Assembly (NCBI GenBank): GCA_921293015.1
Contig: OV121088.1
Span: 35,336,010-35,400,009, forward strand
Origin: Phorcus lineatus
Taxonomy: Eukaryota; Mollusca; Gastropoda; Trochida; Trochidae
DNA length: 64,000 nucleotides
Direction: 5' to 3'
The position numbers were made by a program, and so were the translations under genes. Below the pieces are notes generated by a model. It searched no databases. It saw only the letters and a program-made list of their open reading frames with translations, and had not been told where the DNA came from. Shown piece by piece: positions 682-37,862 of the stretch; within the stretch, counting starts at the first letter, position 1, and every line of letters begins with the position of its first letter.

Positions 682-744
682 ATGAAGCTTCTAGTGGCTT
701 TGGCTTTCCTGAGCTTGAGTTTTGTGAACTCAAAGATGTTGCCG
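682..744 (+). CDS. Protease exon 1: signal peptide
   Basis: Codes MKLLVALAFLSLSFVNSKML plus P. A positively charged start and a hydrophobic core of about 12 residues make a clear secretory signal, with likely cleavage after the small polar residues near 17–18. It ends in phase 0 at a GTAGGT donor (745). Confidence 0.8.
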
Positions 745-3700: not shown

Positions 3701-6700
3701 ATTTGTCAAATATAACTAGGAAAAAGACCAAATTACTCAAATATATACACTTCGTTGCAAAAAATAAAACTTGAATGCCATTTAATTTGTGTAACATATT
3801 TTGAATACATAGTCCTAAGATTCAGTTTGAAACCTTTTTGTAGCATTCCCAAACATACCAAAATCGTTTATATTACTTTCTCATGTGTTCCACAGCTGGA
3901 CATAATTGAACCGAAGGAAACTCTTGACCCCGATGGTGACATTTTATCTACTCATCGGGTAACAATACATTTTATCAAACTTTTCTTCTTTTTAATCTTT
4001 TTTAAAATTCCATTTCAAGCATCTTTTACATTATATATTTGTATATATGCGGTGGCAGTAAACATCTTTGTACATGGATTATAGTTACATCGAAGTTCAT
4101 ACAGTAGTCGTAATGCATTCATTTTGGGTAACAAGAGTGTAATTTGTTAAATGGACATAGTTTTGCTGGATTTTATGAGTGCTTCATAGTTGTGTCAGAG
4201 TTATTGCTATATTTGGCCATTTTCTAGTAAATTGATAATATCTGTCATTTTAAATTGCAATAAATTTGTCTATCTTGTAAACATCCTTAAGTAGTGAAAG
4301 AAATGCTTCGTAAGATATATCTTGTTGTGTTAGGCTTGATATATAAATATACCTTACAGCAAGTAGTAAAACATGATTTATGAATGGTTTGTTTGAGAAT
4401 TCGCCAAAAATGATAATAAATTTAGACAGTTTCAGATTTAATTGTAGATTGTTGTTCAAGAATGTTTCAATTTTATGCCAAAAGTTCTGAACAAGATGAC
4501 AGTCAGAATAAACATGTGATATATCTTCTGGAGCATTCTTACAAAAAGAACAAGTATCATCATCAACTTATTTCATTTTCATTAATTCTTTCTTAGTATA
4601 CACAATTCTGTTGATAAATCCGCATTGGAAGTCTAACAATTTGCAGTCTTTTGTGTATTTTCTAAAATAAACTAAATACATCTTTCCAATTAATCTCATG
4701 CAAAAATACATTATTCCAGTATTCTAATGATTTTGCTATGGTATCATCCTTAATTAATTCATCAAAATATTTCCTGGAGTCTTCAGCCATAGTAAACATT
4801 TGTTTATTACTATATGTGGCAAGTGGTGGGAGAATTTTTGGTCTTGAATTCCTTATTTGAAACCTCCAGCTAGTTGGAATATTCAATATTAACCGTTGGT
4901 AATCTAAGAAGGTTCCCTTGATTTTGTATCTTTCTATGAAATCTTCAAAACTTAGAAAGCCATTTTCATCACAAATATCTATGATACCTACATTTTATCA
5001 AACTTAATTTTTGAAAAACAAATGTCTATTAGTACTTCTTGAAAGAATATTTGACGTTTATTGTACAGAAGCATGTGCATTACATTTTATTGAAGCTAAA
5101 TATATTTTTTTAATTTTTAATATGTTTTTTTTTTTAAAATTCATATTTTTATTTTAAAATATATATACATGCAGGTATATATATTTTAATGATATGCTGT
5201 TTAACCCCCCAAATAATTTTAGATAATGCTTGCTTAGTGAACTTTCTCCTTGCTTGGTCCAACAAATATAACGACTTCACAGTTTTGTCTGTTGACTTCA
5301 TCGTTGATGTTGTATGATGTAACTTTAATTTCACGGAGTGGAATACCATATTTCGATATTTGAACGTACGGATTTTAAACCAAAACTGCTGTATTCCATC
5401 ATTTTAAGTTTGTAAAATCTTTTATCTCAAGTTAAAATTCATAAGGTAAATTGATGCTGTTTCTTCAAAAGGAAAGAATTTTAACAGAGATTGATTAACT
5501 ATATATTCTTGGTTAAGATGTTTCAGTTAATTAACTAAATCTAGTAAGTTTTGTTTTCTATGCTAGATATGCAATTTTACACCGAGAAGCTATGAATATT
5601 CTTAGATAGGGAAGTTTAGGATAGGACGACACATTCTTAGGTAGGGAAGGTTAGGAAGTACACATATTCTTAGATAGGGAAGTTTAGGAAAGAACGTATA
5701 TTCCAGATTCTTAGTTTGCGAGAGTTAGGAAATGATGCGGATTTTAAATTCTAAAGGATTGGGAAAGTCCACATATTTTTAGATTATGAAAGTTGGGAAA
5801 AGACGCATATTCCTACTTTGGAATTGGCCGATTCCAAATTTGAAAAATAAAGGAAAGGGAGCAAATTCCAAATTAAGAAAGGTTATTAAGGATGCAAATT
5901 CCTAGTTTGGAAAGGCAATGACATGACATAGATTCTATATCTAGATATAAGGTAGATTCAAAATTGGGAAAGGTAAGTAAAGGACGAGCATAGAGAGATA
6001 GGAAAGAGCGAACATTTTTGCTTGACGGACGTATGAGGTACTCGAGAAAAATTTCAGATCAACCTTTTTTCTCGTAGACCTTGTCTAGTTCTGCTGGGAA
6101 CCATCAACGCCGGAAGAGAGTAGCTATAACTCACTATAGCAGATTGTGGACTAACGGCATCGTCCCGTACATACTTGATGGTAACCTGTGTAAGTGAACT
6201 GTTCATACTTGGACACAAAACTTCTAATCATTACCTTGTATAGCCTTTAGTTATAATATCCTTCATATTTTCAGTAAAGAATCGGGATATTTGTCATTTA
6301 GTCTCTTGTTACATTTTAGTGGTCAGGAAAGGGACATATTAAGTCTTTAGAATGCATTCTAATATTATCTAAATAAGAATATTACTCATTTCTTTGTATT
6401 TAGATGCATTACAACTTGTGGTTAACTGGCCTTATATGTCTTTAGGATAAATGGGTTTTAAACATAAAAACGACCGCCTTCAAATAATTTTTTGTGTGAA
6501 GCTGACTCAGGTTGGACTTTCTCTTTTCTCATTGATGAACGTTTGCATTTAAGCCAATGAAGAAGAGACCGCTTTGATGGATGGCATCACTGACATAGAA
6601 TATCACACTTGCGTGGACTTCTACCATAAGGATTCTGAGGGATTTTTATATAATCCAACTTTCTCCGAATATTTGCACTTTACACATCAACAGGGGAGCG

Positions 6701-9700
6701 GGTGAGGAATTTGCTTTCTAGCAAAGAATAGTAAATGTGCATTTGTAGGGAGCTTTTTCTATGTACAAGGCACTTGCTCAAAGCCCTAACACAACAATCA
6801 TATACATGGGTAGAGGAGGAAAGTTTATTAAGTTGTAATGTGCAGCAAAAAGATGTGTTTCCAACGAGCGTTTGAAAGAGGTAACGCAGTTGTTGATTTT
6901 ATGGCCAATGGGAGAGAGTTCCATAGAAGAGGGACAGAACAAGCAGAGGACTTTTTTCCCCAAAAGTTTCATATTTTTAGCGAGGCACAGAAAGCATGTT
7001 TTGACTTTGGGAACGCAGTTTCCTTTCTGGGATGCAAAGGTTTAGCTATTCACTTAAATATTGAGGAATTCTCAATTCTGTAAACAAAACACATCAGTTA
7101 GGATTTAATTCTTGATTTTACATGTAGCCGATGTAGATCTTTCATGAGAGGTGTGATATGACAGAGGTTTTGTTGAGTTCTGTGGATGATCATGTCGGCT
7201 GTATTTTGTACATTACAATTTAGAGAGTAGCTTCTACGAAAACTCAAAAGGGAGACTATTGCGGTATACAAGTAGTGAGATGACCAATACTTGAACTAGA
7301 CGATGTGCAGCGTCACGGTCGATAACATGACGTGTTCCTCCAAATGAAAACATCTGCAAATTAATGATGGAGAATGATTGTTGATAAGGAAGTATTATAT
7401 TGTATACAATTCACATGCGAATCCAGTTTTAAACGTGTTTTTTTTCTATATTACGACAATGTGTTTATCGCGAATTATCTACAGTGCTTAAACAACTAAA
7501 AGGTTTTGCTATTGAGCCCAACAGGGGAAGGTCACAGTGATTTAAGTAGTAGTAGTAGTTATGGGGTCGCTGGTTGCAGTTCCTTTATAAATGCGATTGC
7601 TGGCTGATTCTGAGGGTGCTAGTTCGAATCCTTCGATGGATTCGTCATTAATTAGTGAACTAATGTACAATCTCAATAGTGTGATTCCAAATTTAACATT
7701 GATTCTGGTTAGTTTATTGCAAAATAGAATTTGAACCAAACGATCCAGTTACGGTTCAAGTTTCAATATAAAAAAAAATACTTGGAAAGGTACCTCATAA
7801 AAAGCAATAGATATTCGATAACAATTATTGTGTCAACCAAATTAAATAGGAATCTGTTTATGCTCTCTTATATTATGTTAAAGTTTTGTCAAAATTTGAT
7901 AACGAATGTTTTCTTCATATGTTTGATCTAGTAAGCTCAATATTATTCGAGTTTCTAGATAAAATCTTTTTTTCTTGTTTTACAGGTGTGTTTCATACGT
8001 GGGGAGAGTGTACGAAAATCAAAGCATCGTTACATGCGATACGCCGGTGAACAAAATCAAACAATATTTAGAAATTTCATTTCCCTAAGAATTTAATCGA
8101 TGTATCATTACTGTTCCCTAGCTGGCGAGAACAGAATATTTAGATGAACTTTGTATGAAATTAGCGTTTCCATGTTCATAAACTGATAAGATTTAATCTA
8201 TAGAAAGATGAATTCACATTGGTCATAATCGACAAAGAAAGCTTCAAACAATTATTCAATTGACAGACAGAGACACAGAGAGATTGGGACACAGAGAGAT
8301 TGGGACAGACAGAGAGATAGAGACACATAGAGACAGAGACACAGAGAGATAGAGACACAGACAGACAGAGACACAGAGAAAGAGATTGAGACAGGCAGAG
8401 AGATAGAGACACAGAGAGATTTGGACAAACAGAGAGATAGAGACACATAGAGATAGAGACACAGAGAGATTGGGACAGACAGAGAGATAGACACATAGCG
8501 ATAGAGACACATAGGCACAGAGGCACAGAGAGATAGAGACACAGAGACACAGAGAGATAGAGACACATAGAGATGGAGACACATAGATATAGAGACACAG
8601 AGAGATAGAGACACAAGGAGATTGAGACACAGAGATAGAGACACAAGGAGATTGAGACAGACAGAGAGATAGAGACACATAGAGATGGAGACACATAGAG
8701 ATAGAGACACAGAGAGATAGAGACACAAGGAGATTTGAGACAGACAGAGAGATAGAGACACAGAGAGATAGAGACACAGAGACACAGAGAGATAGAGACA
8801 CAAGGAGATTGAGACAGACAGAGAGATAGAGACACAGAGAGATAGAGACAGGAACAGGGAGAGAAGGGGAGGGTGGGGGAGGAGAGAGAGAGAGACTGCT
8901 TGTATCGTATATGATGTATGACGGCAATACTATCTGGGTACGCATTGGAACTAATTGTGCTCCCCTTTATTCTGTGACATCACACCATGCCAACGTCATT
9001 AAGAACCATGATTACCGCTGTATTGTGTGAGACCGCGGTCAAACCATTCCAACATTATTTTTTTGGGGAAAATATTTGTAACTAGAGCTATTAAGAAGGT
9101 TTTTTTTTAAGAATCAGTGACACCATTAAAAAAGAGTTATTCAGTAATTTTGAAAGCAACAGAAAATAAAATTAAGAGACGGCCCAAATCAAGTGAATAC
9201 GAGCTGACGTTTATCGATAGGTCAATTAGCATATTTTTTCAAAAGAGCAGTCAGAATCAGGAAATAACCTTAATCATGTCACAATACTGTTTGCCAACTA
9301 GGAAATCGCCATTCACGAGATGCTACACGCCCTTGGAATCTTTCACGAGCATAACCATAGGGACAGAGATGACTACGTGCAAATCCGGTTTAACAACATA
9401 CGGGAAGGTAATTTTCATTGAGTTAAATTGTAATGATTGAATGAGATAGTTTGATCCTTCAGTGATAAACCCACTATCTGAGTACAGCAGAGTAACTTTA
9501 TCATCTCTGCTCTGATTGGCGTTAAAGTGTAAATGCTTCAACTGGTTTCTTGTTGAATTTGGCATATAACTTTTGCAAATTATGAAGAATTTGAATAGAC
9601 CCGTCGTTAATTTGAGATGTAAAAAGAAAAAAAAGAATGGGTTAAACTTACTTTTTAACATAAATTGTTGAATCTTTTCCGCCTGTCAGCCCTTCACAAC

Positions 9701-23866: not shown

Positions 23867-23963
<97 letters not shown>

Positions 23964-26900: not shown

Positions 26901-29900
26901 CTATATCCAGTCTAAGCATATATTTGCAATGGTTTCAAACCAATCTCAACAATCTGGAACCTTACTCTCTTTCTGCATAGAGAGGTCAGACCTTTGTCAA
27001 GGCTGCTGGTTTCAGCAATGAAACGGTAAGGGCGTTTGACTACACCTAGCTCCAAATCCCTAAAAATTCTGTACATTTTGATAAGAATTTTGATAAGGAA
27101 ATAGGAATTTTAAGGAATTACAGCGTCAGCGTAGTATATAACACCGCTATCAAATTCAGAAATGTAATTTATCTTTGCAATAAGGAATATATTAATCAAT
27201 ATATCCATTCCTCATATCGTCTGGAGCGTAAGGAGAGGGTATCCAAAGTTGGAGAACTTGTTCCCAATCCGTTTCATAATGAATAAAATATGTTTCAATC
27301 AAAATCATAGACTGTGACGGTATTATCTTCGCAGATAACGAATGTACGGTTCCCGATCTAACTGGAGCCAATGTACAGAGGCTCTCTGCAAGTTCCGTGG
27401 GTCTGACGGAAGTTGCCGAATATCGTTGTCTACCAGGTTTTGCACTGGAATCGGGAAATCTCGTGCGCACGTGTGGTTCGAATGGAATTCTTTCCGGAAG
27501 TGACCCAAAGTGTGCTGGTAGGTACCCAGAATGTCGACTCATGTGTTGATTTAGTATTTTGCGTTTAGTTTGGTGCAGAGTGAAATGATTTGAGCAACGA
27601 ACTCTGTCTATTCTTGAATTGGACTGTCATTTACTTTTGAATTTAAAGGATAATTGTATGAATATCGTCTCAGAATGACGTACACCTATGCCAACTTGAC
27701 AGTATATGGCTTAATGTTCAAGTTAGTCTATTAAGGAAAATGCCAAATGGACCGTGAACGATTGTGAACATCAAATATTTTCATTTTCAACGTTTTACTA
27801 TGTCAAAGCTACGCACATTTTTCCTAAACGAAAGATATCTGTATTATACTAAAAGACCCTGCGCATTATGCCTTACCTCAATGGTTTTATTACTATTGTT
27901 AAAAGGGACATTGCAATGAATATGATTATACATGTTCAAATATGTATTAAATTTGATAGAAATACGTTTCTACAGAAATTTTCCATCGTTAAATGAGTCA
28001 ACTAAGATATGATTTATGTTTAAAGTTTCTATCTCCTCTCCAGAGACAATGGTCTGTGTTGATACCCGGGGCGATTGTGGTGCCATGTTGAACTTTCTCC
28101 CCAACATGTGTACCAGTCTGCAAGAATACGCCGATGATTGCCCGGCAACCTGTGGCAACTGTCTTCATGATGGTTTGTTTGTTTCTCTCGACTTCTAGTA
28201 TTCTTCAATTTCTTCCCACATGTGCGGAAGACACGAGTAGAATATTCTCCAGTAATGTCAGTTGCAAGTAGATGTTGTTCTTGGCAAGAAATATTAAATC
28301 CTGATTGAAAACAGTCAAATTATTTCAAACTTATTTTAACTGTTCCCGTTACCTTTTAAGAAGCCTAGAGTATCTTCCAATGTAGTTGCGCACATATTTC
28401 TTGCAAACAGAAATCAATCCGAGATGAAACACGATGTTTGATTGGACCAAAGTAAAGACAGTAGCTTAGTTTTCAACGCCGCTAAATATCGCCCACTCGT
28501 AACAGAGGTTACTGGAGGAAAAGCCTCTTTGAGGAGAGAATATCTATTATTTGAGCAATGACATTAAACGATTGGTGCGGTTATGATGGACAATGGGTCT
28601 TCGGACAATAGAAAGTTCATTAGTATATGATCGGGTAATCAAAATATATATTAATTCTCTGGATGCGAACTTATCTTTAGGATATAATGATCTGTCTGCG
28701 TCATTCATTTGATTGAATTGAGTTTGATTATACTTACAAGAAGAAGTGAAACACTTGAGTCATCTTTAGGTTTTACACCATAATTATATATATAATAAGT
28801 ATCATCAGTTTGAATTTTAACAATTCCCTCATGAAAACTTAAAGGTCCTATCCTAATAACTATTGTGTAGAGAAGTAAAGTTTATTCAAAATAAATCACA
28901 CCGGGGTTGCATATGCATCATGGATTACAGTCGTATCTAGAGCCCTGCATAAATCCAAGAGGATTTTAACTGTTGATATCCTCATTTACAAAATTATATA
29001 AACTTGAGACCAAAGAATTAAACACTAGTTGAAATATACTCAAGAAAATATGTTAAGGACCACTCCGATTTACAATATTTATTTATTCTACTACGCATAT
29101 AATCCTTGTGATTTTAACTGTTGATATCCTCATTTACAAACATATATAAACTTGAGATCAAAGATTTAAAAACTAGTTGAAATATACTCAAGAAAATAAG
29201 TTAAGGACCACCCCGATTTACAATATTTATTTATTCTACTACGCATATAATCCTTGTGATTCCTTTAACTCGAATATTTTAATGATCCTTAACTTGGTTT
29301 TATGTATACATTTCACAGGCTCAATATCAATAAGTCTCAAAATGAATGTTCATTATGTGCAGACACATCGTGCAAAGTGGTCGCGCCAGAGTTTGAAGAT
29401 GCTGTGAGTGTGATAGACGGACAAACGTCCTTGTACCCCGGGCAGGTGGTCAAATATCAGTGTGACCCATCAATGACCCTAGCGACCGGGGACCTCATCC
29501 GAGCCTGCAGACTCGATGGAACCTTAACCGGAAAACCTCCCAAATGTTCAGGTGTGAATTTGTTTGCATCTTCCTGTATATATCTTTCAGCGGGCTGTTT
29601 TCAATCGTAGGGTCCCTCATACTGCACTTAAAATGTCTTGTGTCTCTCTGTCTCTCTATTAGCTCCAAATTTTAGTCTCTGACAGGTTTTGCCTTTCTAC
29701 CTCAATCCTTAGTCAGACATTATCAGAAAAGTTCGTTTTCTAGTTACTCGCCTGGACTTATGTTTAAGGAACAATAACTCAATGAAACGGATTGATATGA
29801 GACGTCAGAAATACATTTAGGCGTTTCTATATTGAGAACCTTGATGTCTGGTCACCTTACTTGCTTGAAATCAAGAGAGTGTGAGATTATAGTTGGATTG

Positions 29901-32900
29901 GAACACAATGTCCTCAAGGCAAGGCCAAAGGTTGATGTAACACAACTTTTTAGGGGCTAGCAGGTCCAATGGAAGTACCCATTGATTGATTCATTCACAC
30001 TTAAGGATAGTAATATGAGTACGGATTTTCTTCATGAAAGTCTAAGGAGCTAGAAAGTAAAGATCATCGGAACATTAGTTCCAGTCTGTCTGCCAGTCTG
30101 TCCGTATTGTTCTCTATCCCTGTGACTTTACTTATGGTTGCCAACCGTTCTCGTTCACTGTATTTGTCCATATCTCTAGCACTATGCATACCTTTGCATA
30201 CCTGAAGAACAGAGTTTCTGGATATCTTTCTTCCTTTATCTCTTCGACCATCTAAAGTGAAACAGAGTATGTTTAATTATTTTACATGTGGCATTAGAAA
30301 GAGCCAAAATACCTTATTACCTGAGTTAAGTTAAAATCTCCTCCCTAAACTTGCATTTTCCCTCCAAAATAATGATGTTTTCTTGTTTTCATCCATAATC
30401 GGAAAACGGCCCTTTAAATGCATTAGTGCAATATTTCGTAAACACAACGAATGCACAGCTACTGCATATCTCTCGATATTACTTACTATCCTCACTCAAG
30501 TAATTAACCTCGTAAGTTATTTAACAAATACTTACGTTTTCAGGTAGTAAAGTTGACTTTTAAAGGCCGGAAGTATTTACTGTTACGTTACGTTAAATCC
30601 GCATGAACTACGATATAAGAAATATTAAGATTTTGCTCATAACCAGAAAAGCGGAAACGGCAGCCGCTATGGTCAATGTAATAACAATGCTAATACTGTG
30701 TTTTTAAATCGGTTAATTTACAACATTGCTTTCTTAAAACATATTTCATGATTTGTTCTCAGTTCAGAGTTTAGGTAAATTCAATAGCTGCACACAGTAC
30801 TAGTTCAGCCGTTTCCAAGTGTCAATAATTTATCCGTTTTGTGCACAGCTAACCATAGATTGTTATATGTCCAAGCCGACAGCGCCGTCTTAACGTTTTC
30901 ATTTTTGATTGCAGGTAAATTGTAAAGAATGTTTAGTATTTCATTGCATCGATAGAAAGTTTAAGTGAATGCATAAGTCCTCGTAAACCTTAAAATAGCC
31001 AATTTAAACCGTAAAAGCGTGCACTAGTGCCTTTTAGATTAAAAATTCGAAATAATCTGCTCAATTAATGTGTATAGTAGTTACAAGACCTACTTAACAC
31101 AATTAACGAATGTTTGTCTTTGTGTCTGCTGTAAATAAGTTTCCGAAATTACCTTTGAATCGCGGCATTGGCGCGCGCCCCACTGTCCGGGTTTTTTTTT
31201 ATCACAAATCGCTACACTAATGCGGTTATCGTCACTTTACTGAACTGATAGGCCAAAGCATAAGGATTCTGATTTTCTGAAACAACCAATAACACCATTT
31301 ACGAAGTTCGACATATTTGACCCCAACAACATACCCCATTAATTAATGTCTCTGTATAACTTTTTCTGCCTTTTTGAGTTCGATATATTTCGGATTCAGT
31401 ATATTTTATAAAAATATGAAACCCTCCCTTTCATAGATAACCCCCCTCCTCCCCCGAGTTATTGTACCCGACACTGTCACTTTTTGATACATATCTCCTT
31501 TGTTATATTCTAGACGTCGCATTCGTTCCACGATGGCTGAATAGTTTGGGGCGGATGAGACTCGAACAGCAAAACGTAGGACAAAGAGCCATTTTCGGGC
31601 CCTCCGAGTACACGACCATACCGACCAATGGACTGCTCACTTGCTGGCGATTTTACTGCCATGCGACTGGACGAGTTCGATTCGTTGTCATCAGGAGGTC
31701 GGGGGATTCATCAAACAGGTGCGTACACGTCCCCTCAGTCTCAACCACTTGGCGATTCAAGCCTTGCCGCATTTTCTCAACTTCTCTGTGCCAACTCTTT
31801 AGCTTAATGCAGCCTAAAATAACTAGAAAGTCCTATCAGAAATCTCCCTGATTCTGGCACTTCACTAAAAACATTGTTTTTTGCGAAAAGCAGCGAGGCT
31901 TAAGTTTGCCAGTGTTGGAGCTACACTATATTTAGCCTTATGTAGCCTAAAATAACTTTATGTCCAATCAGAAATCTCGCTGATTCTGGCGCTGATCATG
32001 AACAATGACGAGGGAGCCGTTCCGCAAAGCCGAGTTAAGGTTAAATGTGGTCCATTCTTATAATGTTGATTGCAAGATTGAAGACATACAAGTGTTTTGC
32101 GTAACGGGGCCTTGATCTCAACAATACTTGTCAAAGACGCCTCGATATCTTTGACTGATGATGACAACCTGATATCCATGATTGGACGACTTTTATGAAA
32201 CGCCCAAACCCACATGAACTAAACTTTCATTCCGATTCTCTGAAAAATCATTTAAAAAAGAATTATCTTTTAAAATACAAGAACGGTGCGAAAGAGAAAT
32301 TGAATTTTATTGCCAATGCAAATCTAGACTTGTTTTACTGTTGTTTAAATTTAAAAAAAAAAATTAAAAAATTGATCCAATACAGCATGCTTGTTACAGG
32401 AAGACATAAACTAAACAGGCAGTAGCTCAACCAAGTTTAGACCAAGTTCACTAGATGACCTTGACGTTCAACAAATGTTTTTGCCAATTTCCCCCTTGAA
32501 ATGATGCTTTTAACATGCAATTTTGGTAATTTATGCATAAGTACAAATAAGAAAATTTAGAACAGAAATAAGATCTAAAAGTGATATTTATATATATATT
32601 TTTAAATCTAATTATTTTACATCGATTTGCAAAAGACAATTTTTATGTATTATACATACATAGTGAATAGGGGTCGAAAAATCAAAGATTTCAGACCACT
32701 TTGTTTCACAACCCATCTTTCGCCTCTTCACTTAAGTATCAATGAAGCGATTTAAAACATTGTTTCTTGTTTTGTTATTTTTAAAATGACTCGAACAATA
32801 TTTCTATCAATTCGTCTTTCGATATTATTGCTTAAAATACTATCTTTATATACACCCAATTTCTCCCCAAGTCTGATATACTCGATCGTAATCAAACGAA

Positions 32901-35900
32901 AAAAGTTTCAAAATATTGCCTTGACCGGGATACGAACTCATTCTGTTCTTTCTTTCCCTACCTGCCACTCGACCCATGAATGTTATGTATGCCATGTACA
33001 TTTCTCCATTACAGTTACTTGGTTGTGAGTCATGACGACTACCAATGTCACGAAGATGTACGTTCAACTTACTGTCCGGATAGGCCCATCCAAGTGGAAG
33101 CGGGGGATTTCATTGGTTTCGTCGACGTGGATGGGGGCAATCTGTATTTCAATTCTTGTTCCCCTAAATCCGAAAATAACTACAGCGAAATCCGACTCGG
33201 GTGGATGTCAAATAACATATATGAGAATGTCACTTTAGAGTCGTATCCAAACTACCGGTTTTGCTGGACCTACAGTTTGAATGCTTTGATAGCCCCAGGT
33301 GAACCCTTCCCTTAACGTTAATGAATTTCATGCCCGTCCCTCAAACTTCCTTGACATTTAAACAACTCTTATTCTGTCTTTGAAAACATGCAATCTAGTA
33401 TTCTAACGTTGTTGTTCTTTCTTAGAGATCGTGATTATCTCGACAATCTCTTGACACGTTGATCTTCTTTCTTGATCTATGGATGTTCTTCTTTTGATGG
33501 CATGCTGATCATCTTTCTTGATATATTGATCTTTATAATTTGTTACTTATTGACCTCCTATATAATATACTGATCTTCTTTTGATGGCATGTTGATCATC
33601 TTCTTGATATATTGATCTTTATAATTTTTTGACATGTTGATCTTTCATATGATGTACTGAGAGAGAGAGTTCCTGTATTGAAGGGCGCATGGCCCAGAGT
33701 ACAATAGTTGATACATTACATTCAATGTTGTTATAATGAACTGATCTTCTTTTGCTGTCATATTGTTAATCTTTCTTGACAAATTGATCTTGACATTTAA
33801 GATCTTAACGTGTTGATGTTCCTTGACATCCTTCTTCATGTTGAAGATGAGCTTCTTTTCTGAACATGATCTTGATAATACCTTGATTTGTTCTTCTTCC
33901 CTCTTTACGTTATTCTTTTGAATAACTCTTACCCGTTGGGCTTCCTTCAATGGTAATCTTAAAATGTTCTTTACCTGTTAATTTACCTCCGTGACCTTAT
34001 TTATCTTGATTATATTTATTTATTATTTATTATATCACCCGCGGAGCCTTCTTCCTTCAATGTTTATCTTAATAAGTTCTTTACCTGTTAATTTACCTCC
34101 GTGACCTTTTTATCTTGATTATTTTTTTCACCCGCGGAACCTTCTTCCTTTGATATTGATCTTGATAATTCTTGAAATGTTAATCTTCCGGTTTGAGATC
34201 AGTTAAATACACTTTGAACTACTTTATGCGTTAGTGACACAAACGTAAAGTGAAGGTCACCTGACCTGTCATGTCCCTGTCTCACTCACTCTCCCAATCT
34301 CTTCTCTTCGACTGTATTTCATCATCTTTAAATGTCAAGTGAGCTTTGAGCTGAATCCGGGAACAAACTTTACATGACGAGACGAAATAACTTTGTATCC
34401 ATTGTTATTGTCATGAATAAATTCAGAGCAAAACACCGTTTTGTTATTTTTTCCATTGATATATAGGTAGATATCGTATTTTGCATTTTATGCACCTCTT
34501 CATGGGTACTATTGTGACTTGCTACGCTAAAGGAACGTACCTAATAACTCGTTTATATATAGCTTTTGAGTCAACAATTTCATGGATAAAATGCTCAAAA
34601 TATCGATTGAATTATTATCGTAGTCAATGACTGTGATTCTGTAAACTAGATCCATAATTAAAACATGACTCAAAATAAGTGCAATACACATTACAGTAAA
34701 CCCTGGTTATATTACCCTCGGTTTTTAATGCCAAACTGGATATAATGCCATTTTTTGTCAGAACGGATTTCCTGCACTTATATTTCACTGGTTATAATGC
34801 CAAACTGGATATAGTGCCATTTGCCAACTCTCTATAGAACAAAAGTCAGTCTTCCCTGACTATAATGCCAATGAAACCACACTATTTCAGATATGGTTTT
34901 AACTAATTAAGGTTAATAAACATGGCTCAAATCCATTCACATTGGGTGCATGTTGTAAAGGTACATTAAGTGGTGGTTATTAGGCACTTCTTGTACATGT
35001 ACATGTATGTATTAAAAAAGCCTTGCACAAGTAAAAGTATCTGTGCCAAATACATAGATAAAAAAATGAAAAATAAGCAAAATGAGAATGCCTTGTTATC
35101 TTTGTAGCCAACATGTTTCTAAATGCCTTACCTGGACATATATTGCCATAATTTATCTCGGACAAATGGTGGCATTATAACCACCCAGACGCCCCCGGCT
35201 TCTATTTTTGCAGAGTCACCTTGGCTTTATATAACACATTCTCCAACGTAGGACGTATTAAGTGAAGAACGTAGGAGATGCTGTCTTACGTAGGTGACAT
35301 TATCTCCTACAGAGAAGATACTCTAACCTACATATGAAATATCAAGGTATACGTACGAGAAACTTTGCTGAACAGTTTTTTTTATTTCAGTGTATGGCTG
35401 TAGGTTACGTGGTCTTTATACCCTACTTTCTTGTTACATGTGGTAAAGTTGCTATAAACACCATGTTCTTTATGTTCAAATTCTTTATTTTAATCTATCT
35501 TTAGCTAGGAGAGTGAGCTAACATACACAATAACCTATTTCATGCAACCTAGTTAATAGTAATGTTGAATGAAAATTATATATTAACTTATATATTAACA
35601 ATGATGAAACACAAACCTAACTTCAAATATGAAAAGACTCAAAATTGTTTTGACCTTAAATGAAACTTGGAATGAAAATTTTCTTAATCTTGCAGGCCAT
35701 GTCCTTCATGAACTACAAACCACATGGCTAAGACTGATAAACAGGATAGCTTAGCAGTAACCTTCCTTTATAGCTATAGTTATGCAAAACGGTTAGATAA
35801 AAAATGCAACTTCAAGTGGAAAATACAATCCTTATTAAATTGAAATGAAAATAAAAGTAAAGAATAATGTTTTTCTATATGGGAAAATTAAAATAGTAAA

Positions 35901-36183
35901 AAATACTTATTTTGACCATTACAGTTATATCAAGTGAATTGAACGGTTTGAAGATGAATAATCAGTTGAAGGGGAACCACATTGTGATCCAAGAAAACCG
36001 TTGGTATTTTATCATGTGAATTATATAATTTTTAATTTAAGTTGAAAAATCAAGAAATAGAATGCCAATCTCTCCTTTCCAGACGAAATGAAAATGGGTG
36101 TGGTTTACTCCGAAAATTACACTTATCAAGATGAATACAGTGTCCTCATGACACGTGTAAATGTATATTTTAGAAATATGTAG
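682..36183 (+). CDS. Secreted astacin metalloprotease with EGF, CUB, kringle, ShK and sushi modules (28 exons, 1306 aa)
   Basis: Zinc endopeptidase of the astacin (M12A) family with a long tail of extracellular modules, expected to be secreted and furin-activated. My exon model is 682–744, 3896–3958, 6078–6189, 6554–6701, 7986–8046, 9302–9407, 9935–10029, 11429–11543, 13871–13990, 14486–14592, 15789–15907, 16749–16864, 17090–17222, 18199–18326, 18813–18944, 19532–19705, 20925–21029, 22234–22413, 22759–22962, 23623–23802, 24113–24298, 25668–25850, 27335–27517, 28044–28172, 29363–29551, 31514–31718, 33015–33298 and 36083–36183. All introns are GT–AG and all phases agree; the total is 3921 nt including the stop. 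Module order by residue: signal 1–17, propeptide to 56, astacin 57–254, EGF-like 255–294, CUB 295–408, kringle 409–495, ShK 496–539, CCP 540–597, ShK 598–632, six CCP 633–1004, ShK 1005–1047, CCP 1048–1110, C-terminal domain 1111–1306. The substrate cannot be inferred. Least certain are the first two exons and the last exon. Confidence 0.88.
1916..2044. repeat. Imperfect inverted repeat with 40-bp arms
   Basis: Arms 1916–1955 and 2005–2044 match in opposite orientation with about four mismatches (starts with TATTCGTGTCCA, ends with TGGACACGAATA). The loop is 49 bases. Intron 1. It could be a foldback element remnant. Confidence 0.8.
2158..2316. mobile_element. 159-bp element with 17-bp perfect terminal inverted repeat
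   Basis: TCTTAACCAGGAATATA at 2158–2174 is the exact reverse complement of 2300–2316. Inside is an AT microsatellite and a segment (CTTTATTCAGTACTCAG…GGCCTATAGTACAG) that resembles SINE or LINE tails. No target duplication is evident. Confidence 0.6.
2598..3561. mobile_element. 964-bp TTAA-flanked element with family-B-like ends
   Basis: The left end TTAAAGAGCCACAGAGTATG and the right end read inward, TTAAAGGGCCACAGAGTTGA, are near-identical inverted repeats. No transposase frame is visible. Intron 1. The ends resemble family B, so it may be an older or longer relative. Confidence 0.6.
3896..3958 (+). CDS. Protease exon 2: propeptide segment
   Basis: Twenty-one codons, beginning LDIIEPKETLDPDG and ending in HR, follow a pyrimidine-rich tract and CACAG acceptor. 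The exon is acidic and has no cysteine, as expected for an astacin propeptide. It is phase 0 at both ends, and the GTAACA donor is weak. It is supported by frame continuity and position rather than by strong homology, because astacin propeptides vary in length and sequence. Confidence 0.65.
4240..4990 (-). pseudogene. Decayed non-LTR retrotransposon, reverse-transcriptase C-terminal part
   Basis: Read on the minus strand, broken frames give SLEYWNNVFLHEINWKDVF, then DTCSFCKNAPEDISHVYSDC and FWHKIETFLNN. The CxxC…H…C cluster followed by FW is typical of the region after the reverse transcriptase in LINE ORF2 proteins. Stops and frame shifts make it inactive. It is antisense to the protease gene, in intron 2. 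Confidence 0.7.
5590..5990. repeat. Degenerate tandem repeat, roughly 40-bp unit
   Basis: Recurring ATTCTTAGATAGGGAAGTTTAGGA-type units with increasing divergence to the right. Non-coding, just upstream of exon 3. Confidence 0.75.
6078..11543 (+). CDS. Protease exons 3–8: furin site and astacin catalytic domain
   Basis: Exon 3 (6078–6189) carries RRKR at 6108–6119, a furin-type activation site, then the mature N-terminus with the LWTNGIVPY motif typical of astacins. Exon 4 (6554–6701) has the first conserved Cys in HTCVDF. Exon 5 (7986–8046) has GCVSYVGR and a further Cys. Exon 6 (9302–9407) holds the zinc site HEMLHALGIFHE (residues 154–165) followed by RDRDDYV. Exon 7 (9935–10029) has the Met-turn SIMHY. 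Exon 8 (11429–11543) closes the domain with QVNELYSC. The three zinc-binding His, the catalytic Glu, the Met-turn and the four family Cys are all present, so the enzyme should be active. The phase series 0-1-2-0-1-0-1 is consistent throughout. Confidence 0.93.
6720..7080 (-). pseudogene. Decayed LINE ORF2 terminus
   Basis: The minus-strand reading includes RKLRSQSQNMLSVPRSK, later HKINNCVTSFKRSLETHLFA and AHYNLI. This matches the common end of LINE polyproteins (a basic RTLRSS-type stretch, the SLWNSLP region, then a TSFKRSLKTHLF tail). The middle is frame-shifted. Intron 4, antisense to the host gene. Confidence 0.6.
8260..8900. repeat. Purine-rich satellite, GAGATAGAGACACA units
   Basis: About 640 bases of AGAGATAGAGACACAGAG-type units, with TTGGGAC and CAAGGAGAT variants, ending in a GA microsatellite. 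Because the repeat has no stops on the minus strand, it opens three overlapping frames of 183–229 codons that are not genes. Intron 5. Confidence 0.95.
10045..10498 (+). mobile_element. MITE-like family A, copy 1 (internally deleted)
   Basis: Starts TTAAACGCACTAGTGCAC, has the family interior (CAGGTAGTAAAGT, GCCGGAAGTATTTAATG, CAGTTCAGAGTTTAGGTAA), and ends in AGTGCCTTTAAA after a deletion. Its left tip lies 15 bases after the exon 7 splice donor. Confidence 0.8.
11900..12700. repeat. 74–76-bp satellite, 11 copies, with higher-order structure
   Basis: Units containing GAAATGATGACGTTGTGACC start at about 11925, 12001, 12075, 12150, 12224, 12298, 12372, 12446, 12520, 12594 and 12668. Variants recur every two units (149 bp) on the left and every three units (222 bp) on the right. 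The minus strand reads through all frames and yields a 325-codon spurious ORF. Intron 8. Confidence 0.93.
13077..13387. mobile_element. Intact 311-bp MITE with 14-bp perfect inverted repeat
   Basis: CAGGCCCCCCTAAG at 13077–13090 is exactly mirrored at 13374–13387. Sub-terminal sequence is also inverted (CAAATTTGAAGGAAAA… and …TTTTCCTTCAAATTTG). ATTTA directly abuts both ends (13072–13076 and 13388–13392), consistent with a 5-bp target duplication. Intron 8. Confidence 0.8.
13520..13745. repeat. Tandem repeat, about 76-bp unit, three copies
   Basis: GATATTTTCAGTCTGGATC recurs at about 13522, 13598 and 13673, each followed by CATATGTAAT and AAAATGTGATGAACAGTACGG. Intron 8, just before exon 9. 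Confidence 0.9.
13871..13990 (+). CDS. Protease exon 9: EGF-like cysteine module
   Basis: Forty residues with six Cys spaced C-x3-C…GSGC-x-C-x-C…C and an acidic end. The spacing resembles the short EGF-like module that follows the catalytic domain in many nematode and molluscan astacins. It is bounded by phase-1 introns on both sides. Confidence 0.75.
14486..16864 (+). CDS. Protease exons 10–12: CUB domain
   Basis: Exons 14486–14592, 15789–15907 and 16749–16864 (phases 1-0-2-1). Recognisable CUB features are YMWVLEAPVGYRLLLDFNEL (the W-x-I-x-A-P…L-x-F core), EDFCVSALNI, then CGSGYSGTIFS and a hydrophobic strand before the exit. Only the second CUB disulfide pair (…FC… and …VCGS…) is present; the first pair is missing. 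The donor of exon 11 is GTACGT at 15908, chosen because it is the one that joins in frame to exon 12. Confidence 0.85.
16330..16450 (+). other. tRNA-like B-box stretch, possible SINE remnant
   Basis: GGGTTCGAATCC (about 16359–16370) matches a polymerase III B box. No cloverleaf can be built around it, so a tRNA gene is not called. Intron 11. Confidence 0.3.
17090..18326 (+). CDS. Protease exons 13–14: kringle domain
   Basis: Exons 17090–17222 and 18199–18326, joined in phase 2 and entered and left in phase 1, the classic split kringle arrangement. Exon 13 gives WCYNVADKGATYNGEMN and CLNW. Exon 14 gives NACRNPGGKRAGPWCF, a strong kringle signature, then CDIKYCDAC. Kringles are disulfide-bonded binding modules best known from blood proteases and ROR receptors. 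One here suggests binding to a matrix or partner protein; this is inference. Confidence 0.92.
18600..18650. repeat. Poly-G tract
   Basis: Long G runs with few interruptions. A similar run occurs at 19848–19871 and another at 41863–41887. Such tracts often cause sequencing or assembly errors, so exact length is unreliable. Confidence 0.9.
18813..18944 (+). CDS. Protease exon 15: ShK-like module 1 (four cysteines)
   Basis: About 44 residues containing HNCVERLADESNLCDTEDGL and then GCRKTC. The spacing matches ShKT Cys2 to Cys5; Cys1 and Cys6 are absent. Entry and exit are phase 1. ShKT modules are common on astacin tails in invertebrates. Confidence 0.72.
18988..19436. mobile_element. MITE-like family B, copy 1 (about 449 bp)
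   Basis: Ends read TTAAAGTGTCACAGAGTATG and, from the other side, TTAAAGCGGCACAGAGTATG, so the element has terminal inverted repeats with TTAA at both tips. It has no coding capacity. It lies in the intron between exons 15 and 16. It is the best-preserved copy of a family found five more times in the window. Confidence 0.75.
19532..19705 (+). CDS. Protease exon 16: sushi/CCP module 1
   Basis: Four-Cys CCP starting SCPTPGPVTG, with VTYQCDS, RYC and GEWS before the last Cys. This is the only CCP of the gene that keeps the canonical Trp before Cys4. Phase 1 at both ends. Confidence 0.88.
19998..20625 (-). mobile_element. MITE-like family A, copy 2 (reverse orientation)
   Basis: TTAAAGGCGCTAGTGCACGC at the left and, read inward, TTAAACGCACTAGTGCATGC at the right. 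Full length, intron 16. All landmarks of the family appear as reverse complements of the other copies. Confidence 0.88.
20925..21029 (+). CDS. Protease exon 17: ShK-like module 2 (four cysteines)
   Basis: Thirty-five residues with NCVTLASNPDYC and CARTC. As in exon 15, the ShK Cys1–Cys6 pair is missing. Phase 1 at both ends; the donor is GTTGGT, a less common but acceptable form. Confidence 0.72.
22234..22413 (+). CDS. Protease exon 18: CCP module 2
   Basis: TCTLPEPSEN start, GEYRCHGGF and RTCRSDGTLTGDLLTC end. The four CCP Cys are present. The usual Trp is replaced by Leu in a G-x-L-x-G pattern shared with the following modules. Phase 1–1. Confidence 0.88.
22759..22962 (+). CDS. Protease exon 19: CCP module 3, two extra cysteines
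   Basis: The longest CCP exon (68 residues). It has TCDVTD, HVTCSHSG, LECQCDQGYTQ and ECFDGGFLAGQQPVC. The added Cys after HVT and inside CQC probably form an extra disulfide. Phase 1–1. Decayed copies of its 3' end lie in the next intron. Confidence 0.85.
23030..23420 (+). pseudogene. Two decayed partial duplicates of CCP exon 19
   Basis: Around 23049–23135 the sequence repeats the last ~50 bases of exon 19 plus its donor and intron start (CTTTGA…GGC…GCTGGA…CAACCAG…GGTTGGAATGGG…TTCAAAAG). A third, poorer version is at about 23359–23415 (GGACTTTGATGG…CAGCAACCAG…TGTGAAG). Both carry substitutions and lack the 5' half of the exon and an acceptor, so they are not counted as coding. They read as relics of a local tandem duplication. 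Confidence 0.6.
23623..23802 (+). CDS. Protease exon 20: CCP module 4
   Basis: ITCDTTTGVN start, VTYECIEGYQLLYGDLTRTC centre and CSEKGILDGHAPIC end. Phase 1–1. About 80 bases after its donor is a long CT microsatellite. Confidence 0.9.
23880..23960. repeat. (CT)n microsatellite
   Basis: An almost pure run of CT dinucleotides, preceded by CTGT variants from about 23820. It lies in the intron after exon 20 and generates overlapping low-complexity frames on both strands that are not genes. Confidence 0.95.
24113..24298 (+). CDS. Protease exon 21: CCP module 5
   Basis: FCNVELTVAG start, ANYACLSGYELSSGNLQRTC centre and CNNNLSLTGNLPSC end. The donor was set at 24299 (GTGCGT), because only this leaves phase 1 for the next exon. 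An alternative GTAACT four bases later would break frame. Confidence 0.88.
25668..25850 (+). CDS. Protease exon 22: CCP module 6
   Basis: VQCSVDLPSDEDLV start, ATYECTSGQLVEGALVREC centre and CLVDGSLSGSSPRC end. Phase 1–1, with a strong GTAGGT donor. Confidence 0.9.
26010..26330. repeat. Minisatellite, about 24-bp unit (GCAAATCTGTTGAATGCATA)
   Basis: Five or so close units at 26030–26150, decaying into longer degenerate copies up to about 26320. Intronic. The short minus-strand frames across it are products of the repetition. Confidence 0.85.
27335..27517 (+). CDS. Protease exon 23: CCP module 7
   Basis: ECTVPDLTGANV start, AEYRCLPGFALESGNLVRTC centre and CGSNGILSGSDPKC end. Phase 1–1. Confidence 0.9.
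28044..28172 (+). CDS. Protease exon 24: ShK module 3 (complete)
   Basis: Six Cys in the full ShKT spacing: VCVDTRGDCGAM…NMCTSLQEYADDCPATCGNC. This is the only ShK copy in the protein that keeps all three expected disulfides. Phase 1–1, donor GTTTGT. Confidence 0.92.
28972..29260. repeat. Tandem duplication, 138-bp unit, two copies
   Basis: The segment beginning GATTTTAACTGTTGATATCC at 28972 is repeated from 29110 with few differences, and the second copy fades near 29260. It sits just before exon 25 and lies wholly in the intron. Confidence 0.85.
29363..29551 (+). CDS. Protease exon 25: CCP module 8
   Basis: SCKVVAPEFEDAVS start, VKYQCDPSMTLATGDLIRAC centre and CRLDGTLTGKPPKC end. Phase 1–1. 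Last sushi of the protein. Confidence 0.9.
30252..31342 (+). mobile_element. MITE-like family B, copy 2, split by a family A insertion
   Basis: Begins TAAAGTGAAACAGAGTATG and follows copy 1 up to the GGAAAACGGCCC segment (about 30413). It resumes at about 31037 with the sequence that follows in copy 1 (AAAATTCGAAAT…) and runs to about 31342. The interruption is exactly one family A element. Confidence 0.75.
30414..31036 (+). mobile_element. MITE-like family A, copy 3 (nested in family B)
   Basis: Starts TTAAATGCATTAGTGCAATA and ends GCGTGCACTAGTGCCTTTTA, with the right-hand TTAA decayed to TTTTA. Full-length interior. Intron 25. Confidence 0.85.
31514..33298 (+). CDS. Protease exons 26–27: C-terminal β-type domain, loosely recognised
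   Basis: Exons 31514–31718 and 33015–33298 join in phase 2. Landmarks are NVGQRAIFGPSEYTTIPTNG, LLTCWRFYCHATGRVRFVVI, SYLVVSH, PIQVEAGDFIGFVDVDGG and RFCWTYSLNAL. The pattern of a G-rich loop, W-x-F-Y, V-x-F-x-V-x-R and V-x-A-G-D-x-I-G resembles an unnamed β-sandwich module that I associate with many secreted molluscan proteins. I cannot give a family name. Extra Cys (TCWRFYC, YQC, YC, SC, FC) suggest a disulfide-stabilised variant. Confidence 0.8.
31805..32010. repeat. Short tandem duplication
   Basis: The block GCCTAAAATAACT…CAATCAGAAATCTC…TGATTCTGGC occurs at about 31809 and again at about 31948. Intron 26. Confidence 0.7.
33420..34200. repeat. Degenerate TTGATCTTCTTT-type repeats with a longer tandem block
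   Basis: Many short TTGATCTT(C/T) units. At about 33973–34150 a unit of about 110 bases with ACCTGTTAATTTACCTCCG and CACCCGCGGA occurs twice. Non-coding, intron 27. Confidence 0.75.
34690..35200. mobile_element. Possible pogo/Tigger-like element remnant
   Basis: TACAGTAAACCCTGGTTATA at 34693 resembles the termini of pogo/Tigger-type DNA transposons. The following GGTTATAATGCCAAACTGGA units are repeated. A matching inverted right end is not clear. Intron 27. Confidence 0.35.
36083..36183 (+). CDS. Protease exon 28: last coding exon
   Basis: After a strong acceptor (CTCTCCTTTCCAG) the phase-1 frame reads DEMKMGVVYSENYTYQDEYS and ends at TAG 36181–36183 after 32 further codons. It completes a strand-like run at the end of the β-type domain. 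A possible donor (GTAAAT) at 36157 would allow a longer C-terminus. An alternative last exon at 39079 would add only eight codons and is less likely. Confidence 0.65.
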
Positions 36184-36588: not shown

Positions 36589-37235
36589 GAGTAGGCTAGA
36601 CCGCCCTAGTCTGTTGTTATGCCTTTTAAAATATTGATGAAGCCACTCCTCTTCTTGCCATGGTTTGATCTGGGTTTCATTTCTCTGAAAGTATTTGTAA
36701 GTGTTTACCAAGCCGCTGCCAGATTGTTTCTTCTAAATTATATAACGCTGTGTTGAAGACGATATGAATTGATAATAGAAGATGGTTGCAAGTTTGACAA
36801 AGTGTAAGCGCCCATAAAATATAGCCAAGCTCTTGGAAAGCTTACCTTAGGACGTCAATTGTTTACTAATGGCAAATGTCTGCGATAAAATTATTTTGTT
36901 TTCGGCTACAGATTGAAGGGATGCAGGTTCGAATCGAGTATTCCTTACTACGACAATTTAAAAGATGAAAATTTAAAAAAATTTGGCGATGTGATACCAA
37001 ACTAAATAGAACTATGAAATCATGTTGTGACACAACTGCAATTAAAATATATACTGGATGGAAATAATTAGGGATATAAGTAAATTCTGAAATTATAAGT
37101 ATTGGTATATCTTTACATTGAACACCTGATGAATTGTTATCCATAAGATTGACAATATCCCTAACTTGTTTAGTCCAGTATATTAAGGTTTATTGGTGAT
37201 ATCTACGGGAGGCACTATCTGAACAATTTCAACCG

Positions 37236-37862
37236 TTAAACGCACTAGTGCACGCCAATATTTCGTAAACACAACAAATGCACAGATACTGCATATCTCT
37301 CGATATTACTCACTATCCTCACTCAAGTAATCTACCTCGTAAGTTATTTAACAAATATTTACGGATTCAGGTAGTAAAGTGGATTTTTAAAGGCCGGAAG
37401 TATTCAATGTTACATTACATGAAATCCGCATGAACTGCGATATCGAAAATATTAGAATTTTGCTCATAAACAGAAAAGCGGAAACGGCAGCCGCTATGGT
37501 CAATCCAATAACAATGCTAATACTGTGTTATCAAATCGGTTTATTTACAACATTGCTTTCATAAAACATATTTCATGATTGTTTCTCAGTTCAGAGTTTA
37601 GGTAAATTCAATAGCTGCATACAGTACTAGTTCAGCCGTTTCCAAGTTTCAATAATTTATCCTAAGTGCACAGCCAACCATAGATTTTTATATGTCCAAG
37701 CCGACAGCGGCTGTCTAAACGTTTTCATTGTTGATTGCAGGTAAATTGTAGAGAATGTTAAGTATTTCATTGCATCGATAGAAAGTTTAGGTGAATGCAT
37801 AAGTCTTCGTAAACCTTAAAATAGCCAATTTTAACCGTAAAAGCGTGCACCAGTGCCTTTAA
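37236..37862 (+). mobile_element. MITE-like family A, copy 4 (full length)
   Basis: TTAAACGCACTAGTGCACGC at the left, GCGTGCACCAGTGCCTTTAA at the right, both with TTAA. It lies in the spacer between the two genes. Confidence 0.9.

What the first reader, a model, noticed from the sequence alone, without database searches (positions are those of the whole stretch)
682..36183. A 1306-residue astacin with an unusual mosaic tail including a kringle
The hand-built 28-exon model is in frame across every junction and gives astacin–EGF–CUB–kringle–ShK–CCP–ShK–CCP×6–ShK–CCP–β-domain. Astacins with CUB/EGF (BMP1/tolloid) or with ShK tails are well known. A kringle together with three ShK and eight sushi modules on one astacin is not an architecture I know.
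Basis: partly seen in the sequence, partly recalled or inferred. Interest (0 to 1): 0.75.

Follow-up and report, generated by a model that had tools for sequence, protein, structure and literature searches.

The report
Snail mosaic astacin protease with kringle
This stretch of a mollusc (probably snail) genome appears to hold one 28-exon gene for a secreted zinc protease with a long chain of binding modules; it belongs to a small gene family here, and a very similar assembly of modules has already been reported from limpet foot mucus.

Summary
A separate search rebuilt the same gene (682-36183, 28 GT-AG exons, 1306 aa, one stop). A splice/codon run using no similarity recovered 20 of 28 exons exactly (score 263; nine controls plus one strand swap 6-69). 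Pfam finds astacin (E 2.7e-34), kringle just above cut-off, and sushi; singly, six of eight sushi exceed the cut-off, one equals it, one misses. One of three ShK modules passes; CUB does not; EGF and the C-terminal domain have no Pfam match.

The gene is not a one-off. In the same 958-Mb genome 11 other loci have an astacin active-site exon, an EGF-like match and the same eight-cysteine kringle in line. Tails differ: lectin-like + ShK + CCP + C-terminal domain; lectin-like only; or ApeC before the kringle. The window gene has no lectin-like exon and carries more CCPs. The organism is a mollusc, probably a gastropod.

The assembly is not unknown: limpet pedal-mucus protein P-vulgata_14 is published as M12A, ApeC, CUB, kringle, sushi x2, C-type lectin-like, ShKT (PMC7333891). 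New here: family context, eight-cysteine kringle, exchanged tails.

The parts
682..744 (+). exon 1: start codon and signal-peptide-like MKLLVALAFLSLSFVNS
   Evidence: ORF, donor, phase 0; no similarity support; missed by the run without similarity
3896..3958 (+). exon 2: propeptide with PDGDI (cf. aspartate-switch motif FXGDI)
   Evidence: motif from PMC9848320; no similarity support
6078..6189 (+). exon 3: end of propeptide, RRKR cleavage site, start of astacin domain
   Evidence: weak paralogue match E 0.01
6554..6701 (+). exon 4: astacin domain
7986..8046 (+). exon 5: astacin domain
9302..9407 (+). exon 6: astacin zinc site HEMLHALGIFHEH
   Evidence: Pfam on raw frame; paralogues
9935..10029 (+). 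exon 7: astacin Met-turn SIMHY
11429..11543 (+). exon 8: end of astacin domain
13871..13990 (+). exon 9: EGF-like, six Cys
   Evidence: paralogue matches; no Pfam match
14486..14592 (+). exon 10: CUB part 1 (degenerate)
   Evidence: same length and phases as an exon of a C17 copy
15789..15907 (+). exon 11: CUB part 2
   Evidence: paralogue matches E 0.002-0.004
16749..16864 (+). exon 12: CUB part 3
   Evidence: paralogue matches; Pfam CUB 19.6 bits over exons 10-12, below cut-off
17090..17222 (+). exon 13: kringle, first half
   Evidence: Pfam; paralogues
18199..18326 (+). exon 14: kringle, second half
   Evidence: Pfam; paralogues
18813..18944 (+). exon 15: ShK1-like, four Cys
   Evidence: paralogues; no ShK match in Pfam
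19532..19705 (+). exon 16: CCP1
   Evidence: Pfam sushi 24.7 bits; groups with CCPa of the upstream gene
20925..21029 (+). exon 17: ShK2-like, four Cys
   Evidence: Pfam ShK 16.8 bits, below cut-off
22234..22413 (+). exon 18: CCP2
   Evidence: Pfam sushi 18.6 bits, below cut-off 20.7; resembles the CCP before the C-terminal domain in paralogues
22759..22962 (+). exon 19: CCP3
   Evidence: Pfam sushi 20.7 bits, equal to cut-off
23623..23802 (+). exon 20: CCP4
   Evidence: Pfam sushi 28.6 bits; raw frame
24113..24298 (+). exon 21: CCP5
   Evidence: Pfam sushi 29.2 bits
25668..25850 (+). exon 22: CCP6
   Evidence: Pfam sushi 22.3 bits
27335..27517 (+). exon 23: CCP7
   Evidence: Pfam sushi 32.7 bits; raw frame
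28044..28172 (+). exon 24: ShK3, six Cys
   Evidence: Pfam ShK 22.5 bits, above cut-off; paralogues; donor read, corrected
29363..29551 (+). exon 25: CCP8
   Evidence: Pfam sushi 26.9 bits; raw frame 19.7, below cut-off
31514..31718 (+). exon 26: C-terminal domain, first half
   Evidence: paralogue match E 1e-5; alignment
33015..33298 (+). exon 27: C-terminal domain, second half
   Evidence: upstream paralogue match E 2e-11; alignment
36083..36183 (+). exon 28: last exon and stop
   Evidence: acceptor and phase; no similarity support; missed by the run without similarity

Best explanation
One gene for a secreted zymogen of the astacin family (M12A). Shown from sequence: signal-like N-terminus, propeptide with GDI and an RRKR site, a complete astacin domain with zinc site and Met-turn, then EGF-like, degenerate CUB, an eight-cysteine kringle, a four-Cys ShK-like module, CCP, another four-Cys ShK-like module, six CCPs, a six-Cys ShK, CCP, and a C-terminal domain with no Pfam match. 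Shown from the genome: it belongs to a family of at least 12 loci sharing the astacin active-site exon, EGF-like exon and eight-cysteine kringle; tails vary between a C-type-lectin-like domain, CCPs and ApeC. Inferred: furin-type cleavage frees an active protease whose EGF-CUB-kringle-ShK part is a fixed chassis, and whose tail docks it on a target (mucus glycoprotein, matrix or microbial surface), so changing the tail changes what is cut. Most likely setting (about 45%): mucus or epithelial secretions, in mucus defence or remodelling, by analogy with limpet P-vulgata_14 found in pedal mucus.
For: Gene model. Catalytic residues: HEMLHALGIFHEH and SIMHY present; E 1.1e-22 to crayfish astacin 1ast, with three of its four disulfide Cys aligned, the fourth lying beyond that alignment. 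Family: 13 of 47 astacin active-site places have a kringle match under 15 kb downstream on the same strand, 0.04 expected if places were random; 12 of these 13 carry the eight-Cys kringle, while 0 of 8 other kringles read here have more than six Cys in the matched stretch. Upstream neighbour: kringle, ShK-like, CCP, lectin-like, ShK, CCP, C-terminal domain; the four C13:34.5-Mb copies each have three lectin-like exons, ShK and CCP after the kringle, and C-terminal-domain exons. C17 copies have lectin-like exons and no later match. C11 has ApeC at 122.9 bits. Selection: pN/pS 0.54 against the upstream neighbour over eight exon pairs, pS 0.76, nearly saturated. Mucus link: PMC7333891 passages.
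Against: No transcript or protein from this species. Exons 1, 2 and 28 lack similarity support and no polyadenylation hexamer was found. The window gene lacks the two modules (ApeC, lectin) that, among the limpet protein's recognition domains, its authors tie to binding of bacteria. The propeptide motif lacks the Phe of FXGDI. Paralogue models come from a home-made gene finder, are partial (the upstream gene's model lacks several astacin exons) and contain some false exons; lectin-like exons score below Pfam's cut-off. One C13 copy (inv2) has its CCP split over two frames, so not every copy need be intact. In one search one pair (CCP6 with CCPb) is not positional and the upstream second C-terminal exon ends in a stop.
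Confidence: 0.75

Rival explanations
1. Two neighbouring genes: an astacin-EGF-CUB-kringle-ShK protease, and a separate CCP/ShK/C-terminal-domain protein, joined by the model.
For: The C17 copies show a lectin-like domain without ShK3-CCP-C-terminal domain; the CCP block here is long; no transcripts.
Against: In the upstream locus and the C13 copies the same ShK3-CCP-C-terminal-domain block follows the kringle part on the same strand in phase 1, though that too is genomic, not transcript, evidence; CCP1 lies in the same place in the upstream locus; every junction from exon 14 to exon 26 is phase 1.
Confidence: 0.1
2. A developmental matrix-processing protease acting like BMP1/tolloid rather than a mucus or defence enzyme.
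For: Catalytic domain matches BMP1 and tolloid-like 1 nearly as well as crayfish astacin; EGF and CUB modules follow it.
Against: Only one degenerate CUB; CCP/ShK/lectin/ApeC tails are not part of tolloids (recalled); tandem similar copies on C13, unusual for a conserved developmental enzyme (inference); the limpet look-alike is a mucus protein.
Confidence: 0.2
3. A digestive or salivary astacin, as the vampire snail's M12-ShK proteins might suggest.
For: M12-ShK proteins occur in Cumia reticulata, where ShKT peptides were found as salivary-gland products (PMC6409789 passages).
Against: That paper was not among those holding astacin, kringle and ShK together, and 'lectin' does not occur in its main text; the long binding tail is not needed for bulk digestion (inference).
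Confidence: 0.15
4. A decaying pseudogene of the family.
For: Long introns and degenerate CUB and ShK modules; another copy (inv2) shows a frame break.
Against: No internal stop in 1306 codons, intact catalytic residues, GT-AG sites throughout, pN/pS 0.54 despite near-saturated pS.
Confidence: 0.03

Closest known systems
P-vulgata_14, limpet (Patella vulgata) pedal mucus, PMC7333891
   Same: Gastropod protein predicted secreted, with M12A, CUB, kringle, sushi and ShKT; the authors also note the absent Lys-Tyr dyad in ShKT.
   Different: P-vulgata_14 has ApeC, a C-type lectin-like domain and two sushi in 1113 aa (no start codon in the contig); the window gene has no ApeC and no lectin-like exon found, eight sushi and three ShK-like modules. 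Paralogues in this genome have lectin-like or ApeC modules.
ShKT-astacins (e.g. Cumia reticulata M12-ShK, PMC6409789; review PMC9848320)
   Same: Astacin domain with ShK modules downstream.
   Different: EGF, CUB, kringle, CCPs and a further C-terminal domain; two of the three ShK modules have only four Cys.
BMP1/tolloid and BP10/SpAN-type astacins (module orders recalled)
   Same: Catalytic domain, basic activation site, EGF and CUB.
   Different: Single degenerate CUB; kringle, ShK, CCP tail.
Kringles of plasminogen and HGF
   Same: Pfam kringle above cut-off; best PDB sequence matches are HGF and plasminogen.
   Different: Two extra Cys, and Gly/Lys where plasminogen kringles 1 and 4 have the acidic pair of the lysine site.

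Membership tests
Astacin (M12A) | Pfam PF01400 over the whole domain | tested here: met
   119 bits against cut-off 22.5, positions 2-188 of 189
Astacin (M12A) | zinc motif HEXXHXXGXXH plus following Glu, and SIMHY Met-turn | tested here: met
   HEMLHALGIFHE and SIMHY in exons 6 and 7; motifs from PMC9848320
Astacin (M12A) | propeptide FXGDI aspartate switch | tested here: inconclusive
   PDGDI in exon 2: GDI kept, Phe not; motif
Astacin (M12A) | protease activity | not testable with these tools
   needs protein
Kringle | Pfam PF00051 above cut-off | tested here: met
   35.1 bits whole protein, 44.3 bits isolated, cut-off 34.3
Kringle | six canonical Cys | tested here: met
   six canonical plus two extra (assignment by eye); eight Cys in all 12 astacin-linked loci, C32 read by eye
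Lysine-binding kringle | acidic pair of the lysine site (plasminogen; recalled) | tested here: not met
   alignment to plasminogen kringles 1 and 4 puts Gly and Lys there
ShK domain | Pfam PF01549 above cut-off, six Cys | tested here: inconclusive
   ShK3 alone met (22.5 bits); ShK2 16.8 below 20.9; ShK1 no match; the last two have four Cys; none listed in the whole-protein scan
K+-channel-blocking ShK toxins | Lys-Tyr dyad | tested here: not met
   no adjacent Lys-Tyr in the three modules; dyad named in PMC7333891
Sushi/CCP | Pfam PF00084 above cut-off | tested here: met
   109 bits in all; singly, six of eight above, CCP3 equal to, CCP2 below cut-off
CUB | Pfam PF00431 above cut-off | tested here: not met
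   19.6 against 21.4 bits, E 0.0012; module placed by paralogue exon structure
BMP1/tolloid proteases | several CUB modules with EGF (recalled order) | tested here: not met
   one sub-threshold CUB, EGF before CUB
P-vulgata_14-like proteins | M12A + CUB + kringle + sushi + ShKT | tested here: met
   domain content, CUB and two ShK modules being sub-threshold
[quoted passage not shown]
   nine lectin-like exon templates: best E in window 0.2; no ApeC in the scan of the spliced product; both occur in paralogues
P-vulgata_14-like proteins | sequence similarity | not testable with these tools
   limpet sequence is not in the text held; supplements could not be opened

The most novel reading that the evidence does not exclude
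Gastropods carry an undescribed multigene family of secreted astacins with a fixed chassis (astacin, EGF, CUB, eight-Cys kringle, four-Cys ShK) and exchangeable recognition tails (lectin-like, CCP array, ApeC), spread by tandem and dispersed duplication, so that one protease is aimed at many surfaces, as a secreted innate-defence repertoire would be. The window gene is the member that exchanged its lectin for a CCP array.
Probability: 0.4. Interest if true: 0.6.

Novelty: new variant of a known kind. Interest (0 to 1): 0.38.

Why it matters
It turns a single unexplained limpet mucus protein into a likely gene family with a conserved core and variable tails, and gives a sequence mark (the eight-cysteine kringle) for finding the rest. 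If the tails set the target, the family is a natural set of proteases with different aiming parts, useful for asking how mucus and epithelial secretions are defended or remodelled in molluscs. As a single gene it is an unusual arrangement of ordinary modules.

Tried and rejected
Two-gene reading: considered, disfavoured (see rivals). C9 as a 13th family member: its kringle is of the ordinary type without the extra Cys pair and lies 5.5 kb from an astacin exon; not counted. A lectin remnant in the window: nine lectin-like exon templates gave no hit better than E 0.2 on the + strand, while the upstream locus gave E 2e-11 with a template from another copy. A recent CCP array: no DNA-level repeat found covers the CCP exons and identities among CCPs 1-8 are at most 47%; the CCP tree splits CCP1/CCPa from the rest (100/98) but is open within and has long branches. 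Last exon at 35696 offered by the first run was dropped for 36083 (better acceptor by eye). An echinoderm source is disfavoured by the mitochondrial code, judged on recalled conserved residues; the code alone would not exclude every other animal group, the haemocyanin domains point to molluscs. The bacterial-type promoter/terminator scan is uninformative here. Pfam on raw frames found only astacin and sushi.

Full report
The gene. All 27 introns are GT-AG, phases chain, and there is one stop. The junctions from CUB part 3 to the first C-terminal-domain exon are phase 1, except the intron inside the kringle (phase 2). A run without similarity predicted 21 exons on the + strand of 1-37000, 20 of them identical to the model and one extra, score 263; it missed exons 1, 2, 3, 4, 6, 12, 13 and 28. 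Ten controls: reverse strand 20; 37001-59000 on either strand 31 and 16; five block shuffles 6, 8, 8, 9, 23; window 27001-64000 reversed 27; upstream 30 kb reversed 69. The codon table came from paralogue exons and the noncoding table from 37001-59000, so the run is not wholly independent of either.

The protein. Pfam on the spliced product: astacin 2.7e-34, sushi 1.5e-31 in eight stretches, kringle 1.6e-8, all above cut-off for the whole protein, plus a chance zf-C2H2_8 at 0.025; ShK and CUB are not listed there. Singly, CCP1-8 score 24.7, 18.6, 20.7, 28.6, 29.2, 22.3, 32.7 and 26.9 bits against 20.7. As isolated pieces ShK3 passes (22.5 against 20.9), ShK2 does not (16.8), ShK1 has no ShK match, CUB is just below cut-off (19.6 against 21.4), and the EGF-like exon and the C-terminal domain have none. 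The catalytic domain is closest by sequence in the PDB to crayfish astacin (1.1e-22), then tolloid-like 1 and BMP1 (5e-21 to 3e-20). HEMLHALGIFHEH, SIMHY and an RRKR site before the mature start are present; the propeptide has PDGDI where the review gives FXGDI. The kringle's best PDB matches are HGF and plasminogen; where plasminogen kringles 1 and 4 have the acidic pair of the lysine site (role recalled) it has Gly and Lys, so canonical lysine binding is unlikely. None of the ShK modules has an adjacent Lys-Tyr, so channel block is unlikely.

The family. In the source genome (958 Mb, 74 contigs; window at C13:35336010-35400009) 13 of 47 astacin active-site places have a kringle match within 15 kb downstream on the same strand, against 0.04 expected for random places. 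Tandem copies are not independent; the 13 fall on five contigs. Twelve of the 13 (the window gene, its upstream neighbour, four copies at C13:34.5 Mb, three on C17, one each at C13:7.8 Mb, C11 and C32) have a kringle with eight Cys, on four contigs; the C32 one was read by eye. The C9 kringle lacks the extra Cys and is not counted. Eight other kringles of this genome, C9 among them, have five or six Cys in the matched stretch. Of the 11 other loci, 10 models hold an EGF-like exon between astacin and kringle; the eleventh (C17a) has an EGF match.

The tails. The upstream locus, whose active-site exon lies 18.9 kb before the window and whose last modelled exon ends about 3.8 kb before the window gene's start codon, has CUB, kringle, ShK-like, CCP, a Thr-rich linker, lectin-like exons, ShK, CCP and the C-terminal domain; its model lacks several astacin exons. 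The four similar C13 copies each have kringle, ShK-like, three lectin-like exons, ShK and CCP, and C-terminal-domain exons; an Asn- or Asp-rich stretch precedes the lectin-like exons in the three read for it; in inv2 the CCP match is split over two frames. The C17 copies have kringle, ShK-like, a Ser/Thr-rich linker seen in 17b, and lectin-like exons, with no later match to the window tail. C11 has ApeC between EGF and kringle (122.9 bits); C32 has a similar exon by resemblance only, and a ShK-like exon after the kringle. Three lectin-like pieces scored 20.3, 20.6 and 14.0 bits against a cut-off of 22.6 on partial models, and the last had a better, also sub-threshold, match to another family. 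No lectin-like exon was found in the window. CCP2-7 group with CCP8 and the upstream CCPb, apart from CCP1/CCPa (100/98), so the array most likely grew from the CCP before the C-terminal domain (inference). No DNA-level repeat was found over these exons.

Selection. Against the upstream locus pS is 0.76 and pN 0.41 over eight exon pairs; with pS near saturation the ratio 0.54 understates the constraint. One pair is not positional (CCP6 with CCPb).

The organism. COX1 on contig C74 reads better under the invertebrate than the echinoderm mitochondrial code, judged on conserved residues recalled. The order nad3-trnS-nad2-cox1-cox2-trnD-atp8-atp6 (protein genes other than cox1 named by eye) is one recalled for molluscs. 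Molluscan haemocyanin beta-sandwich matches lie in two clusters of eight, as in gastropod haemocyanins (recalled). I call it a mollusc, probably a gastropod.

What is in print. Ten searches of the held PMC library. PMC9848320 (passages, and section 5 part 1 of 2) lists kringle, sushi, ShKT and C-type lectin among astacin accessory domains in a figure legend; the word kringle occurs once, in that legend. PMC7333891 (passages) reports P-vulgata_14, 1113 aa, in bulk primary adhesive mucus (a protein had to be found in all three animals to be so assigned), with M12A, ApeC, CUB, kringle, sushi x2, C-type lectin-like and ShKT; its authors propose an antibacterial role and found no reliable homologue beyond hypothetical proteins. 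PMC6409789 (passages) describes M12-ShK proteins in a snail. PMC12549020 (passages) had no kringle in its main text. Other papers were seen only in search listings.

Mechanism. Shown: modules, catalytic residues, family, differing tails. Inferred: furin-type activation, docking by the tail, exchange of tail as exchange of target. Setting in mucus or epithelial secretion: analogy with the limpet protein, about 45%; developmental matrix processing about 20%, digestive about 15%.

Verdict. A well-supported gene model; a new variant of a kind already seen once in limpet mucus; the gene family is the more interesting part.

Noticed in passing
window 59380-60675 +: A 432-residue open frame with at least five C2H2 zinc fingers (Pfam zf-C2H2, 116.6 bits, five stretches): probably the next gene downstream.
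   Followed up: partly
window 35123-35242 +: A short frame resembling the first half of the C-terminal domain (E 8e-4 to C13 copies), not fitted into the gene model: perhaps a relic exon duplicate.
   Followed up: partly
C13:34530001-34630000 (L018-L027): Four similar tandem copies of the lectin-like family member, active-site exons 22-27 kb apart; in inv2 the CCP match is split over two frames.
   Followed up: partly
C11:38279001-38289000 (L037); C32:13580501-13593000 (L040, L042): Astacin, EGF-like, ApeC (C32 by resemblance) and eight-Cys kringle exons in line; in C32 the third His of the zinc motif is followed by Ser, not Glu.
   Followed up: partly
window 10047-10482, 30435-30959, 37235-37732: Three copies of what looks like one dispersed repeat, also matched in the C13 and C17 loci.
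   Followed up: no
window 11869-12686 and 8265-8850: A 74-base minisatellite of 11 copies and a 16-base purine-rich array, both in introns of the model.
   Followed up: no
window 23839-23979: A TC repeat starts 36 bases after the donor of exon 20; it could affect splicing.
   Followed up: no
C12:7646582-7661095 and 16557773-16572398: Two clusters of eight molluscan haemocyanin beta-sandwich matches each.
   Followed up: no
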